A stretch of 64,000 bases of DNA. Origin: Paraburkholderia phytofirmans PsJN (lineage in GTDB: Bacteria; Pseudomonadota; Gammaproteobacteria; Burkholderiales; Burkholderiaceae). The position numbers and the translations under genes are program-made. Below, one piece after another: positions 55,513 to 64,000 of this stretch. Position 1 is the stretch's first letter. The number at the start of each line of letters is the position of its first letter. The notes beneath the pieces are model-generated. The model ran no database searches, was not told the origin of the DNA, and saw only the letters and a program-made list of their open reading frames with translations. The stretch covers positions 620,001 through 684,000 of the forward strand of contig NC_010676.1 of the NCBI RefSeq assembly GCF_000020125.1, read 5' to 3'.

Positions 55513-56196
55513 CTAGCTCACATTGAAATGCACGCGGACGTCCTGCCTGCTTTCGATCGGATGGCCGCCCTGCAATGCCGGAAAAAAGCGCCATTTGCGT
55601 AGGGCTTCGAGGAGAAGCTGGTTGAGGCGTGGATTTTGAGTCGGCTTGAGCAGTTCGACATCGACCGAGCCGTCGACATGAATCACGAAGCGCGCGGTCG
55701 CAACGGTTTGATAGGCTTGCTCGCGTAGATCGTCGGGTAATTCGGGTAACGGTTGCGCGATAGAGCGCGCGGCTGTGTCGCCGGGAGGGAGAGTGGGTTG
55801 TGATGTGCTTTGTCTTTCCTCTTGGGAGTTAGGTGAACGCGCGGTGGACTCGGTGGACGCGGTGGATTCATTGGGAGCGGGGATTCGAGTTGGCTGAACG
55901 TCCGGTGTCGGTTGCCGCGGTGTGCGTGCTTCAGCGGGTCTCGGCGCAACATGCTGACGTGGCTCGACTGGTCGCTGTGGTTTGACCGTGGGCGCCGGTT
56001 CGCGATGCACTGGCGCCTGCGGATCGAGTTCCACCACGCGCATCTCCAGCGGCTTATCTGGCGCTGGCTGCGATGTCGTTGCGTCGAGCCAATGTCCGAG
56101 CGCGTACAGAAACACGATCCAGACTACGAGCGCGACGACGATCGCCAGTACGATCCGAAGCGTCGGCGAATCATCGATTGAAATGGTCAGACGCAT
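55513..56196 (-). CDS. tonB: TonB energy-transducing protein
   Basis: A 227-aa TonB. One N-terminal transmembrane anchor (LRIVLAIVVALVVWIVFLYALGHWL), a Pro-rich periplasmic spacer (VHREPAPTVKPQRPVEPRQH...), and a C-terminal TonB domain (YQTVATARFVIHVDGSVDVELLKPTQNPRLNQLLLEALRKWRFFPALQGGHPIES). It links the ExbBD motor to the receptor encoded upstream. It is last in a four-gene reverse-strand operon, 4 bp after exbD. Confidence 0.9.
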   Translation of the reverse strand: MRLTISIDDSPTLRIVLAIVVALVVWIVFLYALGHWLDATTSQPAPDKPLEMRVVELDPQAPVHREPAPTVKPQRPVEPRQHVAPRPAEARTPRQPTPDVQPTRIPAPNESTASTESTARSPNSQEERQSTSQPTLPPGDTAARSIAQPLPELPDDLREQAYQTVATARFVIHVDGSVDVELLKPTQNPRLNQLLLEALRKWRFFPALQGGHPIESRQDVRVHFNVS

Positions 56197-56200
56197 CGCG

Positions 56201-56599
56201 CTATTTTGGACGCACGGCGATCAGAAACCGCGCCGCGCCGGCTCGGCGTGCGGCGAGCATGGCCTGCACGACTGCGCCGTGGCCCGCAGCGTCGTCGGCG
56301 GCAATGACGACATTGGCGTCGGGCTGCAGCAGTCGCTTTATCGTCGGCTCGATCTGATCGGGGCGCACAGGCAGATGGTTCACGAAGATTTCGTTGCGAC
56401 TGTCGACCGAGATGGTTAGCGGCTCATGCTCGGCCAATTGTTGCGCGCGACCCGCGGGCAACGTCAGCTTGACGGCATCGAGCCGCTGCATGGCGAGCGA
56501 AGCGAGCATGAACGTCGCCAGCAGAAAGAACATCACGTCGATCATCGGAATGATTTCGATGCGGCCACGTCTGGCCGCGCGCGAACGTTTGAACTTCAC
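56201..56599 (-). CDS. exbD: ExbD biopolymer-transport protein
   Basis: A 132-aa protein with a single transmembrane helix. RGRIEIIPMIDVMFFLLATFMLASLAM carries the essential membrane Asp (P-M-I-D-V), the proton carrier. The periplasmic domain (LTISVDSRNEIFVNHLPVRPDQI) follows. It forms the stator with ExbB. The ATG overlaps the exbB stop by 4 bases. Confidence 0.92.
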   Translation of the reverse strand: MKFKRSRAARRGRIEIIPMIDVMFFLLATFMLASLAMQRLDAVKLTLPAGRAQQLAEHEPLTISVDSRNEIFVNHLPVRPDQIEPTIKRLLQPDANVVIAADDAAGHGAVVQAMLAARRAGAARFLIAVRPK

Positions 56600-57243
56600 G
56601 ACTGCGCTCCCGCAACGCTCGTGGCAAGACGTATTTCACCGAGCCGTGCAGTCGCGAACGATTCGAGTTCATCCATCAGGCGCTCAAGCCGACGGGAAAA
56701 ATAGTTGAACGCGAAGAGTGCGAACAGCGCGACGACGAGACCGATCGCCGTCGCCACCAACGACTGCGCGACGCCGCCGGTGACGCCGGCCGGATCGACG
56801 AGCCCCGTGCCGCCGAACAGCTGAAACGAATGCATCATGCCGACGATGGTGCCGAGCAAGCCCAACAGCGGCGCGGCCGTGACGATCGTCTCCAGCACCC
56901 AGAAACCCTTGCTCATGTCGCGCTCGATCTGCGAAGCGACCGATTGCGCATTGGCTTCGCGCAGCCACAGCGGAACGGATGCATCGGGCCTCCACGATGT
57001 ACTCATACGTTTGAATACGTTCTGACGTGGCGCATGATTCAATCCGTTGTCCATGCCGGTGGAAGATGCGGGCATGTGAATTCCGTGCGCGTCGTCGGCG
57101 CCCGGCGGCAGACGGCCGAAACGCAAAAACACATAGGCGCGATCGAGGACGATCGCAACCGCCACAACAGCAAGTACCGTGAGCGGATAGATCACCCATC
57201 CGCCCACGCGCACCGCCGCCAGAATATTCGTCCAATCTTGCAT
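56596..57243 (-). CDS. exbB: ExbB proton-channel protein
   Basis: A 215-aa MotA/TolQ/ExbB-family protein with three transmembrane segments: VGGWVIYPLTVLAVVAVAIVLDRAYVFLRF, then FWVLETIVTAAPLLGLLGTIVGMMHSFQLFG, and VAQSLVATAIGLVVALFALFAFNYFSRRLERLMDELE. The TM2/TM3 Thr and Gly positions that line the channel are present. It drives the adjacent TonB with ExbD. It starts 26 bp after the receptor gene. Confidence 0.92.
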   Translation of the reverse strand: MQDWTNILAAVRVGGWVIYPLTVLAVVAVAIVLDRAYVFLRFGRLPPGADDAHGIHMPASSTGMDNGLNHAPRQNVFKRMSTSWRPDASVPLWLREANAQSVASQIERDMSKGFWVLETIVTAAPLLGLLGTIVGMMHSFQLFGGTGLVDPAGVTGGVAQSLVATAIGLVVALFALFAFNYFSRRLERLMDELESFATARLGEIRLATSVAGAQS

Positions 57244-57269
57244 GACTGACCTCGTGCTGCGTGACAGAT

Positions 57270-59615
57270 TTAGAAATGCTTGGTGATACCGGCGTAGACG
57301 GCGAAATGCGGGCCGTATTGCGGCGCGCCCACTCCGATGCCCGAGCCGTCACGCAATTCATAAACGCGGTTGAATGCATTGACGACCAGCAAGCGCGCAT
57401 CGAACTTACCCACTAGAGGCTGGTTGAAATGCTGGATTACGCCGAGATTGATCTGCGCATAGACGGGCAGGCGATCGGTGTTGGCGAAGCCGCTTCTCAG
57501 GCCGCTGCCCACCAGGCCGTCGAAGGTGAATGTCGTTCTGCCGAGGTCATACGTGCCGCCGAATGACGCGGTGATGCGTTGGTCATGATCCAGATACACC
57601 CAATGGTCGTTGATGTAGGCAAGTTCGTCCGCTTCGAAATTGAACTGAGCCGAGTCGATTTGTTTGCCTTGCGCGCGGCTGTAGGCGAAGTTCAGATAGG
57701 CGGACGCGTTGTCCTGCTTGTAATTCGCGGTGAATTCGAGTCCGTACACGCGTCCGTATTGATAGTTGAACGGCGTGAAGATGAGGGCGGAGCCGAACTG
57801 ACCTTCGTCGAGCAGGTTAGTGGATTTTTTGTAGTAGGCGTCGATGCCGACCGTCACGTTCGAACCGAGACGCTGTGTGACGCCGAGGTCGAAATAATGA
57901 CTGCGTTCCGGCTGCACCTGATCGTTCTGACTCGACGGACTCTGGTTAGTGGTGCCGTTGAAGCGGCTGATGGTGGAGCCGGACACCAGTTCGAATGCGG
58001 GTGGTGTGAAGTAGCGCGCATAGCCGGCGTGAAAGGTGGTGGTCGGCGTCAGCGCATAGACCAGCCCGATGCGAGGACTCAACTGGCTCGCACTGACGTA
58101 CTCATCCATCTTGTCATAACGCAGCCCGTAATTGAGCGTGAGCTTGTCGGTGATTTTCCATTCGTCTTGCACGTATGCGCTGTACAGGTAGCCGGTTCTG
58201 CTGCTCGAGTCGTGGATATTGAAGGGCTGGTCGGATAGCTGATTGCCCTCGGAGTCGGCTGCGAACACGTCGACGCTGTCGTCGAATACCGCGTGTTCCT
58301 GCTGGAAAAAGAGGCCGGCGCGAATCGTATGCTTCTCGTTGAGTCGCCACGTGGTGTCGACTTGCGCACCGTTGGCCGAGTTGCTGTGAAAGTCCTGGGA
58401 CGCAACGCCGTTGAAAAGCAGGTCGCCCACCGGATCGGGATTGAATTGCGTTCGCGTGTAACGGGTGAATAGCGCGACCTGGTAGTCCAGTGCGCCGCCA
58501 TTGGTGCCTTGAAGCGCCAGCACCGCAAAATTGTTCAACTCCGATTGCGTCTCGTCCAACTGACTCGAATCGAACGCGTTGTTGCCGTTGAGCGTGAAAT
58601 TTGTTGGAAGCCCCGGCGTGTTGGGGATTTCGAATTGGTTGCTCGTGGTGCCGAACATCAGGCTCACTCGCGTGAGCGGATTGATGATGTATGACATATA
58701 ACCGAACGCATCGCCCTGACGGGTGTGGTCATGCAGCGCGCTCGCGCTTGCGGTCGGGTTCTCGATGCCGAGGTTGTTGACGCCAAGTGAGCCGCTGAAG
58801 TAGTAGCTGAACGGACCTTGCGTGCCGAACACGTCGGCGCTGGTCTTGAGGGTCTGGTGGCTGCCGCCGAACACGTCGATGGTGCCGCCGTTGCCCGCGT
58901 CACCGGTTTTCGTGCGGATGTCCACGACACCGGCCGTGCGGTAGCCGTACTGCGCCGGTAAAGCCCCGGTCAACAGATTGACCTGGTCGATGATGCGCGT
59001 GTCGAGCGCTTGCCCAAAGCCGCTGATCGGTTCAGGAATGATGATCCCGTTGATGCGATATTGCAGATTGGCGTGGTCTCCGCGCACGTGAAGTTGTCCG
59101 TATGAATCGCTGGCCACGCCGGGCGCTTGCAGCAGCACCTGATTCAGTGGCGTGTCCTGGCCTGCGGGTAGCGCTTCGATATCGGCCTGGCTGAAGCGGT
59201 ACACGCTGCTGCCGGTCTCGGGCAACAACCCATTACGCGCTCTGTCCAGTCGCTTCGCGTTCACCTGAACGTCGAGTGTGCCGCTCTTTGCAAGACTAAC
59301 GCTGACGGTGCTTTCCGCGCCGGCGCTCGTGGTGGTGATGCTGTTGCCGCTCGCAAATCCCGGTGCGGTGACGACGATCGCGTAGGTGCCCGGTGTCACG
59401 TGCGCGATGGCGAAGCGGCCTTCGGCGTTCGTTTTCGCCTCGGTGACAGCGGCGCCGCTCGCGTTCTGCACGATTACCGTGGCGTTGTTGACGGGTTGGC
59501 CGGCGGCGTCTGTGACTGCGCCGGTTACTGAACTTTCGTCAGTCGCGGCGTGGGCGTGGGCGGCCATGGCGAACAGCAGCAAAGCTGCAGAGGAGACGCG
59601 CGTGCGGATTGTCAT
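57270..59615 (-). CDS. TonB-dependent outer-membrane receptor with carboxypeptidase-regulatory-like N-terminus
   Basis: 781 aa: a signal peptide to ~23 (ALLLFAMAAHAHA); a CarboxypepD_reg-like beta domain at ~26-110 (VTGAVTDAAGQPVNNATVIVQNASG); a plug at ~125-240 (ALPAGQDTPLNQVLLQAPGVASDSYGQLHVRGDHANLQYRINGIIIPEP); and a 22-strand barrel ending in Phe (VYAGITKHF). It heads the receptor-exbB-exbD-tonB operon, so it has a private energy source. The ligand is not readable from sequence; a Zur-box-like site upstream hints at zinc or a zincophore. No metal-binding His-rich loop stands out. Confidence 0.9.
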   Translation of the reverse strand: MTIRTRVSSAALLLFAMAAHAHAATDESSVTGAVTDAAGQPVNNATVIVQNASGAAVTEAKTNAEGRFAIAHVTPGTYAIVVTAPGFASGNSITTTSAGAESTVSVSLAKSGTLDVQVNAKRLDRARNGLLPETGSSVYRFSQADIEALPAGQDTPLNQVLLQAPGVASDSYGQLHVRGDHANLQYRINGIIIPEPISGFGQALDTRIIDQVNLLTGALPAQYGYRTAGVVDIRTKTGDAGNGGTIDVFGGSHQTLKTSADVFGTQGPFSYYFSGSLGVNNLGIENPTASASALHDHTRQGDAFGYMSYIINPLTRVSLMFGTTSNQFEIPNTPGLPTNFTLNGNNAFDSSQLDETQSELNNFAVLALQGTNGGALDYQVALFTRYTRTQFNPDPVGDLLFNGVASQDFHSNSANGAQVDTTWRLNEKHTIRAGLFFQQEHAVFDDSVDVFAADSEGNQLSDQPFNIHDSSSRTGYLYSAYVQDEWKITDKLTLNYGLRYDKMDEYVSASQLSPRIGLVYALTPTTTFHAGYARYFTPPAFELVSGSTISRFNGTTNQSPSSQNDQVQPERSHYFDLGVTQRLGSNVTVGIDAYYKKSTNLLDEGQFGSALIFTPFNYQYGRVYGLEFTANYKQDNASAYLNFAYSRAQGKQIDSAQFNFEADELAYINDHWVYLDHDQRITASFGGTYDLGRTTFTFDGLVGSGLRSGFANTDRLPVYAQINLGVIQHFNQPLVGKFDARLLVVNAFNRVYELRDGSGIGVGAPQYGPHFAVYAGITKHF

Positions 59616-61650: not shown

Positions 61651-62115
61651 TTGGATGCCTAACTAGTAAGAGATTGAAGTTGGCTTGCGAATTAAGTGAA
61701 GCTAAGTCTTTGCTTATCCACCAACATGACCCGCATGCAATGAGAGCCGCGCGTACATGCCTGTTTCGTCACTACCGTGCAGCGTTTGTCGCTGTCTTGT
61801 AGGGGCGAACACATCGGGTTTCCTCTTATTCCAAATTTTTTTCGTGATTGTGAAGAAAAACTCTAATCTTACAATTACCTGAACGTTTGGCGTGCGGAAG
61901 ACGGGTGCTCCCGCCGTCTAACGAAAAAGCTGTTCACGCGCAAAGCCTTATCCAGTCTGGCTCCCAAACGCTTGCGCGGTTAAGTCTGACGATTACGTTT
62001 ATTAAAGATTTGCGTTTTGCATGTCGTTATCCAGTCAAATAATCTGGACCATCGGACATACGCAAGCCTTTGACGGCAAGCGCTGACGAGGAAATCGCTC
62101 TTCGGGGGAATCATC
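61651..62115. other. 465-bp AT-rich noncoding region upstream of the cNMP-FliG gene
   Basis: No gene seen. The stretch ~61810-61880 is strongly AT-rich (poly-T then AAGAAAAACTCTAATCTTACAATTACC) and probably contains promoters for the divergent small peptide and cNMP-FliG genes. Confidence 0.4.
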
Positions 62116-63360
62116 TTGAATCACCAACGATCGCCATGGTCGCGTACAGCGGCTCCGGGCGAAGTCATCTATTCCGAGGGCTTTGCGGGCGACGCCGTCG
62201 TCTACGTCATTGCGGATGGCAAAGTCGAAATCTCCACCCAGTGTGACGAGAAGAAGGTGATTCTCGCCACACTGGGTAAAGGGGAGTTTTTTGGCGAGGC
62301 GGCGTTGCTGCCGCCCGAACCACGAGCGCACACCGCGAAGGCACTGAGCTTCTGCCAGTTGACCGTCATCGCGGCGAAGGTGGTGGAGGAGGAACTCGAA
62401 CGTGTCTCGCCGTTGCTTCGCCATATCGTACGCACGCTGATACGGCGCGTGAAAAAGAAGGACGATGTTCTTGCCACGAATACGCACGCGGACTTTCTGC
62501 CGGGTGTCGTGTCCTACGCGCACGTCCTTTCATTGATGGCGGGCGGCGAGAATGCCGACAGGCTCGACGGCCGCATGCGCCGCGCGCAAGGGGAGGAGTT
62601 CTCTGTGCCTCTGCCTGACGTAATCAGGAAGTGCCATGCCATCGCCGGCCATTCGCGTCCGCACGTGATGGCCATGCTCAAACGAATGGAGAAGCTCAAT
62701 CTCGTCTCGCTCGAACCCGGCCGGACCGACCGTCCGAGCACGGCCTCAGCGCGCTATTCCGCGCAGGACGGCGCAACGAGCCGGCAACTAGTCACGTTCG
62801 ATCCCGTGCGAATCACCGAGCGTGCGCAACAGGTAGCGGATCACGATCTCGATCTCTCGATCAGCAGCGAACTGGAATTGATCGAGCTGGACGACCTGGA
62901 AGCTTTGATCGGCGTCGAGAAGAAGGTGATTCTCAACAAGCTGTCTCACTCGGAAATCGCGGAAGACCTTTTTGCGTTTCGCAAGACCAAGGTGTTGAAT
63001 TACGTCGAGGAAAAAGGTATCAGCTATTTCTCGCGCCGCAATACCCGGGGTTTGACCGAGCTGAAGTCGCTCGACGATCTGGAGTTCGTCGACCAGCGAA
63101 CCTTGTTCGAAGCGGTGAGCGCGTTCGACACATACGACCTCGCGAAACTGCTGTCCGCCGTGACGGGCCAGCCGATCGCCGAGCGGCTGCTCTCGGTGAT
63201 GACCGAGGCGAGAAAGAAAGAAGTCTCGTGGGTCATGCGTCGGGAGATCAAGATCGATCCACTTGAAATCGCCGAGATCGAAGAGCGCTTTCTAGAGATC
63301 GTGCGAACAATCAAAGCTCCGGCGGCTGCGGCTGCGCCGCTTTCCAATCTTGACGCCTGA
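62116..63360 (+). CDS. cyclic-nucleotide-binding protein fused to a FliG-C-like domain
   Basis: A 414-aa soluble protein starting at TTG after GGGGGA. Residues ~14-110 are a cNMP-binding domain (PGEVIYSEGFAGDAVVYVIADGKVEIS, ATLGKGEFFGEAALLPPEPRAHTA; the phosphate-binding loop G-E-A-A-L and Arg70 are present). Residues ~163-200 (VPLPDVIRKCHAIAGHSRPHVMAMLKRMEKLNLVSLE) look like a winged-helix remnant. Residues ~255-400 are two FliG-like repeats; the second (LDDLEFVDQRTLFEAVSAFDTYDLAKLLSAV ... RFLEIVRTI) aligns by eye with FliG-C, including D-D/Q-R at the start and the closing helix. The FliG-C acidic pair appears as VMRRE. The MotA-like gene begins 72 bp later, so a rotor or brake role is inferred. 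Confidence 0.75.
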   Translation: MNHQRSPWSRTAAPGEVIYSEGFAGDAVVYVIADGKVEISTQCDEKKVILATLGKGEFFGEAALLPPEPRAHTAKALSFCQLTVIAAKVVEEELERVSPLLRHIVRTLIRRVKKKDDVLATNTHADFLPGVVSYAHVLSLMAGGENADRLDGRMRRAQGEEFSVPLPDVIRKCHAIAGHSRPHVMAMLKRMEKLNLVSLEPGRTDRPSTASARYSAQDGATSRQLVTFDPVRITERAQQVADHDLDLSISSELELIELDDLEALIGVEKKVILNKLSHSEIAEDLFAFRKTKVLNYVEEKGISYFSRRNTRGLTELKSLDDLEFVDQRTLFEAVSAFDTYDLAKLLSAVTGQPIAERLLSVMTEARKKEVSWVMRREIKIDPLEIAEIEERFLEIVRTIKAPAAAAAPLSNLDA

Positions 63361-63432
63361 CGCGCAACACGCAAACGGCAGGCCGCGTCGGCTTCGAAGT
63401 TCGAAGTCGCGGCCGGCCATTCGAGAGGACAT

Positions 63433-64000
63433 ATGGATCTGTTGACGCTATTTGGTGCGGTGTTCGGCGTGACGGCGATCGTCGCGGGTTTCTCGCTCGA
63501 GGGCGGGCACTTTACTTCGCTGTTTCAGTTGGAGGCATTCGTCATCGTTCTGGGCGGCACTTTTGGCGCCGTGATGATTCAGAACACATGGGCAAGGTTT
63601 TTCGACGGCATCAAGCAACTGCGCCTTGCTTTCGTGAAGGCGCGGCAGGTCGATCGCGAGAGCCTGTCCGTTTTGCTCGAGTGGGGCGATCAGGCCAAGC
63701 TGAACGGCATGCTGGTGTTCGAGTCAATCGAGGCGGGCGGCATCAATCCGTTTGCCAAACGAGGTTTGGAGTTGCTGGCAAACGGCGTGTCGACGGCCGT
63801 GCTGGAAGACGCTTTGCAGCGAGAGCTGGATGCGTATGAGCGCAATCACATGTTGGCCGCGCGGATCTGGCAACAGGCCGGCGGCTACGCACCCACGTTC
63901 GGGATTCTCGGTGCGGTACTCGGTCTGATTCAGGTGACCGGCCATATGCTCGAACCCGCGCAACTCGGGCAAGGTATCGCGGTGGCTTTCGTCGCGACGC
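63433..64000 (+). CDS. MotA/MotC-type flagellar stator protein, N-terminal part
   Basis: 189 residues before the window end. The MotA/PomA pattern is clear: MDLLTLFGAVFGVTAIVAGFSLEGGHFTSLFQLEAFVIVLGGTFGAVMIQ (TM1-2, E-G-G-x motif), a cytoplasmic loop (ESLSVLLEWGDQAKLNGMLVFESIEAGGINPFAKRGLELLANG, RELDAYERNHMLAARIWQQAGGYAPTFGILGAVLGLIQVTGHM), then LGQGIAVAFVAT at TM4. It is closest in style to the MotC group, which lacks a long N-terminal insert. GAGAGGAC precedes the ATG. A MotB/MotD-type partner is expected beyond the edge. Confidence 0.9.
   Translation, partial: MDLLTLFGAVFGVTAIVAGFSLEGGHFTSLFQLEAFVIVLGGTFGAVMIQNTWARFFDGIKQLRLAFVKARQVDRESLSVLLEWGDQAKLNGMLVFESIEAGGINPFAKRGLELLANGVSTAVLEDALQRELDAYERNHMLAARIWQQAGGYAPTFGILGAVLGLIQVTGHMLEPAQLGQGIAVAFVAT

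What the first reader, a model, noticed from the sequence alone, without database searches (positions are those of the whole stretch)
62116..64000. Cyclic-nucleotide sensor fused to a FliG-C-like domain, encoded next to its own MotA-type stator
Seen: one 414-aa frame has a cNMP-binding fold, a winged-helix-like middle and two FliG-like repeats, and a MotC-style stator gene follows 72 bp later. Known: FliG-C is the rotor face that meets MotA; cNMP domains sense cAMP or cGMP; YcgR shows that nucleotide receptors can dock at this interface. Inference: the protein could replace or compete with FliG, or act as a clutch tuned by a cyclic nucleotide for this particular stator. In my by-eye alignment the acidic pair of the FliG torque helix is Arg-Arg, which might match a stator with altered loop charges. 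I know of no described system with this domain combination.
Basis: partly seen in the sequence, partly recalled or inferred. Interest (0 to 1): 0.82.

Follow-up and report, generated by a model that had tools for sequence, protein, structure and literature searches.

The report
Cyclic-nucleotide sensor with rotor-mimic domain
A bacterial cyclic-nucleotide receptor carries a copy of the part of the flagellar rotor that touches the motor's power units, and its gene usually sits next to its own set of power-unit genes, so it is probably a switch that lets a small signal molecule control a flagellar motor.

Summary
The finding holds, with corrections. The 414-aa protein (cF, window 62116-63360) has a cyclic-nucleotide-binding domain with conserved ligand contacts, a weakly supported winged-helix-like middle, and one FliG-C-like domain. 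The FliG match is below threshold in this protein (17.7 bits, cut-off 23.3) but clear in relatives: four distant homologues score 27.5-38.3 bits. Only the stator-facing end of FliG is matched; the claimed second FliG repeat is unsupported. A cassette of cF, MotC-type sA and MotD-like sB stands in 103 of 104 cF-bearing Burkholderiaceae genomes, and in three of four distant genomes of the class, there with another stator type. Triad stators lack MotA's Arg90-Lys91 rotor contact (106 of 106; Lys-aliphatic in Burkholderiaceae) but keep Glu98 (105 of 106); all 8 other MotA-type stators compared keep Arg-Lys. cF residues W372 and R376 are invariant beside stator genes and changed in all 5 orphan paralogues. 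One distant cassette has a nucleotide cyclase gene just upstream. Best reading: a cNMP-gated FliG mimic that docks on its own stator and controls rotor engagement. Nine paper searches found no description.

The parts
61965..61976 (.). Upstream near-palindrome (consensus CAAACGTTTG; one base off here), possible repressor operator of the cassette
   Evidence: Conserved in 13 aligned upstream regions of close relatives; function inferred
62003..62031 (+). Conserved promoter-like block TAAA-N15/16-GTCGTTATC; only loosely like a sigma-28 promoter
   Evidence: Conserved in 13 relatives; only 5 of 8 matches to a sigma-28 -10 consensus recalled from memory
62116..63360 (+). cF, 414 aa: cNMP-binding domain + winged-helix-like middle + ~70-aa module + FliG-C-like domain; close homologues are named Crp/Fnr or cyclic nucleotide-binding protein
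62146..62400 (+). cNMP-binding domain, residues 11-95; ligand contacts E61 and R70 (role recalled) conserved
   Evidence: PF00027 E 1.6e-18; E61 in 86 of 86 and R70 in 84 of 86 aligned sequences
62593..62733 (+). Winged-helix-like region, residues about 160-206
   Evidence: At E<=10: MarR_2 in 7 of 33 members, HTH_Crp_2 in 1 of 33, all weak
62842..63051 (+). Middle module, residues about 243-312; fold unknown; shortened in orphan paralogues
   Evidence: No FliG-model match, no convincing solved structure; conserved in triads, shortened in orphans
63067..63312 (+). FliG-C-like domain, residues 318-399, corresponding to positions 20-100 of 108 of the Pfam FliG_C model
63433..64000 (+). sA, MotC-type stator gene (continues past the window end; 254 aa in full)
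   Evidence: 189 aa in the window; full; PRK09109 248.6 bits, cut-off 237

Best explanation
cF is a cyclic-nucleotide receptor that regulates a dedicated second flagellar stator. Its FliG-C-like domain imitates the part of the rotor that meets MotA, so it docks on the cytoplasmic face of the stator (5 sA, 2 sB by analogy) encoded in the same cassette. Binding or loss of a cyclic nucleotide (most likely cAMP) at the CRP-like front half changes whether the mimic domain holds the stator, and so whether the stator can engage the real FliG ring: a ligand-gated clutch or gatekeeper. Shown: domain content, cassette conservation, conserved ligand contacts, FliG homology, lost Arg90-Lys91 in the partner stators, and change of W372/R376 in paralogues without stator genes. 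Inferred: physical contact, ligand identity, and the direction of the effect.
For: FliG_C homology. Only the stator-facing FliG end is matched (FliG_C positions about 17-104; no FliG_N or FliG_M match listed). cF followed by sA on the same strand in 102 of 109 fetched loci, i.e. 102 of the 103 other cF genomes, plus the window = 103 of 104; sB seen in 101 of those 102, the other locus ending too early. In 21 neighbourhoods compared, the cassette genes recur in all 16 non-orphan ones, while flanking genes in the printed clusters are shared by at most 6 of them. Same cassette in three distant genomes, with stators whose best model is MotP, then PomA, instead of PRK09109. Stator rotor-contact residues: Arg90-Lys91 in 8 of 8 other MotA-type proteins, Lys-(Leu/Val/Ile) in 103 of 103 Burkholderiaceae triad stators, Ile/Met/Leu-Ala/Gly in 3 of 3 distant ones; Glu98 kept in 105 of 106. 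Arg90/Asp288-289 and Glu98/Arg281 are the published contacts (PMC12505986, PMC7564593, passages read). W372 and R376 invariant in 102 of 102 readable triad cF, changed in 5 of 5 orphans. Cyclase-domain gene just upstream of one distant cF (PF00211, E 1.3e-7). Canonical FliG in all 4 distant and 59 of 60 tested Burkholderiaceae cF genomes; the exception has frameshifts in cF and sB.
Against: No structure prediction or co-fold could be run, so contact between cF and sA is untested. Profile-profile comparison with 30 FliG sequences gave probabilities of at most 1.3%. PDB profile hits to FliG had E 0.2-0.9 and unrelated chains scored slightly better. In Burkholderiaceae cF the FliG positions K264 and R281 hold non-basic residues, so docking cannot be the canonical charge pairing. 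Five orphan paralogues keep the FliG-like domain without stator genes, and a partial second cF copy at a contig start in G581 (L215) has none in the next 5.5 kb. One genome has FliG-like domains in large proteins without other Pfam matches. The W372/R376 change was picked after the fact: positions changed in all 5 orphans are 5 of 26 near-invariant ones in the FliG-like domain, against 8 of 41 in the winged-helix region and 4 of 44 in the cNMP domain, and four of the orphans are close relatives. A winged-helix-like middle also fits a transcription factor. The cF frameshift in the FliG-less genome G533 lies in a run of one base and may be a sequencing error, and G533 keeps a flagellin match. 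Arg90 to Lys in the Burkholderiaceae stators is a mild change.
Confidence: 0.5

Rival explanations
1. cF is first of all a CRP-type transcription factor of the stator cassette or of other genes; the FliG-like domain senses free stator or is an oligomerisation add-on.
For: CRP-like layout with a winged-helix-like middle, net charge +2 over residues 119-242; Arg181 invariant in 102 of 102 readable triad cF, in the place I align by eye with CRP Arg180 (CRP sequence recalled); a conserved palindrome and promoter-like block upstream of the cassette; source name 'Crp/Fnr family transcriptional regulator' for many homologues.
Against: Winged-helix matches are weak; Arg181 is not conserved in 3 of 4 distant homologues; other CRP DNA-contact positions look changed (from memory); a pure transcription factor would not explain why the stator-facing part of FliG was acquired.
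Confidence: 0.22
2. cF is an adaptor that brings the second stator to the flagellar motor, joining or bridging the FliG ring rather than blocking it.
For: Near-constant pairing with a second stator in genomes that have a normal FliG; stators with an altered rotor-contact loop might need an adaptor.
Against: No match to the FliG parts that bind FliF, FliM and neighbouring FliG (their roles recalled); no data on location.
Confidence: 0.13
3. The cassette is a separate rotary device: the stator turns cF instead of the flagellum.
For: Lost Arg90-Lys91 in the stator and a private FliG-like partner.
Against: FliG is present in 59 of 60 tested family carriers and FliG and flagellin in all 4 distant ones; the one genome without FliG has a damaged cassette; no output element is encoded with it.
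Confidence: 0.06
4. The FliG-like fold is just a generic interaction domain and the stator neighbourhood is incidental or historical.
For: Five orphan paralogues without stators and a stator-less partial copy in G581; FliG_C-like domains in large proteins of G971; MgtE_N, a FliG-related fold by my recollection, gives weak matches.
Against: 103 of 104 genomes keep the cassette although flanking genes differ between groups, and distant cassettes pair cF with a different stator type.
Confidence: 0.09

Closest known systems
FliG C-terminal domain (Pfam FliG_C; solved example 1qc7)
   Same: Sequence homology over the stator-facing domain (alignments)
   Different: No FliG N or M match; charged torque residues changed; fused to a cNMP receptor
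YcgR, MotI/DgrA and FlgZ (c-di-GMP receptors at the motor)
   Same: A nucleotide second-messenger receptor proposed to act at the rotor-stator interface (passages of PMC9039648)
   Different: Those respond to c-di-GMP, by recollection through PilZ domains; cF has a CRP-type cNMP domain and a rotor-like domain and is encoded with its own stator
CRP/FNR family regulators
   Same: cNMP domain followed by a winged-helix-like region; source name of many homologues
   Different: About 170 extra C-terminal residues including the FliG-like domain; stator cassette; DNA binding untested
MotCD second stator of Pseudomonas
   Same: sA passes PRK09109 (recalled as MotC); sB matches MotD best, below its cut-off
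   Different: Arg90-Lys91 replaced by Lys-aliphatic in Burkholderiaceae triads; preceded by cF. The non-triad proteins scoring closest to sA (L131, L137) keep Arg-Lys
EpsE clutch of Bacillus subtilis
   Same: Works like: a protein that uncouples rotor and stator (passages in PMC9039648 and PMC13432727)
   Different: EpsE is a glycosyltransferase that binds FliG; cF would bind the stator

Membership tests
FliG-C domain homologues | Match to the FliG_C profile over the curated cut-off | tested here: met
   Not by the window protein itself (17.7 of 23.3 bits), but by its relatives: 38.3, 38.1, 27.5, 38.3 bits; cF loci of 28 of 60 Burkholderiaceae genomes marked over the cut-off, two of them only with neighbours in the frame
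FliG (rotor/switch protein) | FliG N and M domains for ring assembly | tested here: not met
   FliG_C was the only FliG model listed at E<=10 for the window protein and at E<=5 for four distant ones; HMMER's filters drop most matches above about 0.1
FliG (rotor/switch protein) | Conserved charged torque residues (K264, R281, D288, D289, R297) | tested here: not met
   Burkholderiaceae: K264 and R281 positions hold non-basic residues; acidic pair and R297 not conserved as a set in either register. Distant: R281 kept in 4 of 4 and K264 in 3 of 4
cNMP-binding receptor | Phosphate-binding cassette Gly-Glu and Arg (roles recalled) | tested here: met
   G60 and E61 in 86 of 86, R70 in 84 of 86; in triads E61 102 of 102 and R70 100 of 102 readable
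cNMP-binding receptor | Measured binding of cAMP or cGMP | not testable with these tools
   No assay; a cyclase-domain gene adjoins one distant cF
CRP/FNR transcription factor | DNA-binding winged helix | tested here: inconclusive
   Weak MarR_2 (7 of 33) and HTH_Crp_2 (1 of 33) matches at E<=10
MotAB/MotCD flagellar stator (sA, sB) | MotA_ExbB and MotA_N domains; MotB-type TM aspartate and OmpA-like domain | tested here: met
   Window sA over both cut-offs; distant sA over MotA_ExbB, below the MotA_N cut-off; distant sB with OmpA and MotB_plug; TM Asp in 105 of 105 sB
MotAB/MotCD flagellar stator (sA, sB) | Rotor-contact residues Arg90 and Glu98 of MotA | tested here: not met
   Arg90 absent in 106 of 106 (Lys in 103, Ile/Met/Leu in 3); Glu98 present in 105 of 106. 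Still clearly stator-type by profile
YcgR/MotI-type motor regulator | PilZ domain binding c-di-GMP | tested here: not met
   No PilZ match listed in the Pfam scans of cF

The most novel reading that the evidence does not exclude
cF is a direct relay from motor to genome: while its stator is idle, the FliG mimic keeps the CRP-type factor at the membrane; when the stator engages the rotor, real FliG displaces it and the freed, nucleotide-loaded factor changes gene expression, so the cell reads stator engagement (load, surface contact) as a transcriptional signal.
Probability: 0.12. Interest if true: 0.95.

Novelty: new variant of a known kind. Interest (0 to 1): 0.75.

Why it matters
Motor control by c-di-GMP receptors is well known; a CRP-type cyclic-nucleotide receptor built to touch the motor is not described in what I could search. 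[quoted passage not shown] cF is a concrete candidate for a receptor of that kind in Burkholderiaceae and makes the question testable there. It would also be an example of a rotor surface copied into a regulator, with stators whose rotor-contact loop differs alongside it. cF was found in 104 of 398 sampled genomes of the family, and the named homologues listed carry only Crp/Fnr, cAMP-binding, cyclic-nucleotide-binding or hypothetical-protein names.

Tried and rejected
Profile-profile comparison of cF pieces with an alignment of 30 FliG sequences gave no significant score and scattered placements; significance came only from Pfam's broader model and distant homologues. PDB profile searches placed FliG among the top hits but with E 0.2-0.9, behind unrelated chains, and a single-sequence search of the C-terminus found no FliG. 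I considered the 243-312 module as a second FliG repeat and, by eye, as an excisionase-like helix-turn-helix; neither was supported. I considered a non-flagellar rotary machine; FliG and flagellin in all four distant carriers speak against it. A sigma-28 promoter for the cassette was considered and left open. Literature: searches found no paper describing this protein or cassette; the library lacks most subscription journals and all bioRxiv preprints.

Two alignments disagreed on the register of the last helices. (no gap there): FliG D288/D289/R297 positions are mostly W/V/D in Burkholderiaceae. (gapped): R, E/D and E. I rest no claim on one of them. K264 and R281 assignments agree in both.

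Rows not followed: nine rows read through one stop codon; five of those proteins (L035, L043, L057, L065, L066) were seen as open frames of 403-408 aa, the other four were not examined for this. In one search some MotA_ExbB matches came without a locus, so the 8 comparison stators are those in hand, not every stator of those genomes.
Full report
WHERE IT IS. The window is bases 620001-684000 of contig C1 of an 8.2-Mb, three-contig genome. The best public protein match is from Paraburkholderia sp. BL6669N2 (97% identical over the full length). The frame 62116-63360 encodes 414 residues and starts with TTG. The start and a GGGGG stretch before it are conserved in 13 aligned upstream regions. I call the protein cF. 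The stator gene begins 72 bp after its stop. Taken from the whole genome, the stator proteins are sA (254 aa, L002:5434-6198) and sB (222 aa, L002:6248-6916), all on the same strand.

WHAT cF IS MADE OF. Residues 11-95 are a cNMP-binding domain (PF00027, E 1.6e-18); the cassette residues G60 and E61 are present in 86 of 86 aligned homologues and R70 in 84 of 86. Residues about 160-206 resemble a winged helix, but only weakly (at E<=10, MarR_2 in 7 of 33 members and HTH_Crp_2 in 1 of 33). Residues about 243-312 form a conserved module that matches no FliG model and no solved structure convincingly. Residues 318-399 match Pfam FliG_C. In the window protein alone this match is below threshold (17.7 bits against 23.3). 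Across the family it is not: 30 of 33 members match at E<=10, best E 3.8e-6; in 30 of 60 cF-bearing genomes the cF locus matches at E<=1e-3, 28 of them marked over the cut-off (two only with neighbours in the frame); and four distant homologues score 38.3, 38.1, 27.5 and 38.3 bits. The matched part is about positions 17-104 of the 108-position model, which ends in the stator-facing domain (1qc7, 101 residues, aligns over the same part). No FliG_N or FliG_M match was listed. Other comparisons did not reach significance: profile-profile against 30 FliG sequences and PDB profile searches, where FliG had E 0.2-0.9 and unrelated chains ranked slightly higher.

HOW COMMON, AND WITH WHAT NEIGHBOURS. 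cF (searched with residues 120-414) was found in 104 of 398 sampled genomes of the same family and 2 of 300 of the order; profiles of its C-terminal part hit 5 of 369 of the class and 2 of 398 of the phylum; each sample contains the window's own genome. I fetched the cF loci of the other 103 family genomes. Of the 109 loci examined, 102 hold cF followed by sA on the same strand, one per genome, and sB was seen in 101 of them (L044 ends too early; in L213 and L214 cF itself is incomplete). Five loci are orphan paralogues without stator genes (L048-L052). L215 is a partial second cF at a contig start in G581 with no stator gene in the next 5.5 kb. L216 had no cF match at that threshold. With the window this makes 103 of 104 genomes with the cassette; the 104th (G339) has only an orphan. 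In a comparison of 21 neighbourhoods the cassette genes recur in all 16 non-orphan ones, while flanking genes in the printed clusters are shared by at most 6 of them. Eight plasmid-collection records also encode cF at 64.8-71.5% identity.

DISTANT CASSETTES. Four genomes of the same class outside the family have cF. Three carry the cassette: L102 (G857), L103 (G970) and L104 (G846; its contig has the length of the public record 'Gammaproteobacteria bacterium isolate Madre5'). The fourth, L105 (G971; likewise 'Methylococcales bacterium isolate SI037_bin4'), has cF without stators on its 8.8-kb contig. The three distant sA score best as MotP, then PomA, below the cut-offs of those models, whereas the two Burkholderiaceae sA tested pass PRK09109; so cF pairs with two kinds of stator. 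L102 has a gene with an adenylate/guanylate cyclase domain just upstream on the same strand (PF00211, E 1.3e-7), and L103 has a second cNMP-domain protein between cF and sA. All four genomes also have canonical FliG and flagellin.

STATOR SIDE. Published rotor contacts of MotA are Arg90 with FliG Asp288-289 and Glu98 with FliG Arg281 (PMC12505986 and PMC7564593, passages read). All 8 non-triad MotA-type proteins found among the loci compared (from five genomes) have Arg90-Lys91 and Glu98; the five printed alignments of sA to solved stators also show Arg followed by Arg or Lys there. Triad stators differ: Lys then Leu/Val/Ile in 103 of 103 Burkholderiaceae, Ile/Met/Leu then Ala/Gly in the 3 distant ones, with Glu98 kept in 105 of 106. 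The channel aspartate of sB is kept in 105 of 105.

ROTOR-MIMIC SIDE. Distant cF keep the FliG Arg281 position in 4 of 4 and Lys264 in 3 of 4; Burkholderiaceae cF have non-basic residues at both (one search agrees). The register of the acidic pair is uncertain: Trp-Val, Arg-Glu/Asp. W372, R375 and R376 are invariant in 102 of 102 readable triad cF; W372 and R376 are changed in all 5 orphans. Among positions near-invariant in triads, at least 3 of 5 orphans keep 37 of 44 in the cNMP domain, 28 of 41 in the winged-helix region, 16 of 34 in the middle module and 20 of 26 in the FliG-like domain. The middle module is thus the part that goes when the stator genes are absent; the FliG-like domain as a whole is not changed more than the winged-helix region, so W372/R376 are a modest hint, picked after the fact, and four of the orphans are close relatives. 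Of those four, three (L048, L050, L051) have downstream of cF a conserved gene, encoding GGDEF and EAL domains in L048, where the stators would be; the fourth (L049) ends at the contig edge, and the fifth orphan (L052) lacks that gene.

DEPENDENCE ON THE FLAGELLUM. Canonical FliG was found in 79 of 80 genomes tested: 59 of 60 with cF (one of these, G339, orphan only) and 20 of 20 without. FliG presence therefore does not predict cF. The one cF genome without FliG (G533) shows no match like the 48-bit, 298-aa MotA of its relative G566, though a weaker partial match remains; its cF match is split over two frames and its sB match over three. This is suggestive only: the cF frameshift lies in a run of one base and may be a sequencing error, sA is intact, and G533 still has one flagellin match.

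MECHANISM. The most economical reading is a cyclic-nucleotide-gated FliG mimic that docks on its own stator and controls whether that stator engages the rotor. Contact, ligand and sign are inferred. Rivals are a transcription factor with a stator-sensing domain, an adaptor that recruits the stator, a separate rotary device, and a generic use of the fold. The boldest reading not excluded joins the first two: stator engagement releases the factor to act on genes.

KNOWN OR NEW. Named homologues in the listing are Crp/Fnr, cAMP-binding, cyclic-nucleotide-binding or hypothetical proteins. Nine paper searches found nothing on this protein or cassette; a 2025 survey of stator evolution, searched for six terms in its main text, has no occurrence of 'cyclic' or 'Burkholderia' (PMC12505986). 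It works like YcgR- or MotI-type motor regulators but is not a member of that family: no PilZ match was listed. It is not a FliG either. I call it a new variant of a known kind.

Noticed in passing
L113:3143-4747 and L114:6-2864 (genome G971): FliG_C-like domains (57.9 bits; 75.7 bits in two stretches) in large proteins of 534 aa and over 950 aa that match no other Pfam family at E<=0.01, in what appears to be a Methylococcales metagenome bin.
   Followed up: partly
L048:3677-6163, L050:3114-5594, L051:3499-5979: Orphan cF paralogues in three genomes are followed by a conserved gene (GGDEF-EAL in L048) where the stator genes would be.
   Followed up: partly
L102:9695-11917: Protein with an adenylate/guanylate cyclase domain encoded just upstream of a distant cF; the N-terminal half looks like CHASE2 by eye, with no Pfam match for it at E<=0.01.
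   Followed up: partly
L103:7849-8322: A second, stand-alone cNMP-domain protein sits between cF and the stator gene.
   Followed up: no
L052:6429-9326: The most divergent Burkholderiaceae orphan cF stands next to a gene for a sigma-54 activator with a VpsR domain.
   Followed up: no
L011 (G000:C1:2209862-2210152): The window's genome has a further MotA-type protein, so three flagellar-type stator A subunits (with L010 and sA) but one FliG_C match at E<=1e-3.
   Followed up: no
window 55513-59615: By eye a TonB-ExbD-ExbB-TonB-dependent receptor cluster on the minus strand; the ExbB-type channel is supported by a MotA_ExbB match of 96.3 bits.
   Followed up: no
L002:10892-12628: A 578-aa protein with a cNMP-type N-terminus (match) and, by eye, a thioredoxin-reductase-like remainder, about 4 kb downstream of the cassette.
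   Followed up: no
window 61965-61976: Near-palindrome conserved upstream of the cassette in 13 relatives; resembles LacI/PurR-type operators as I recall them.
   Followed up: partly
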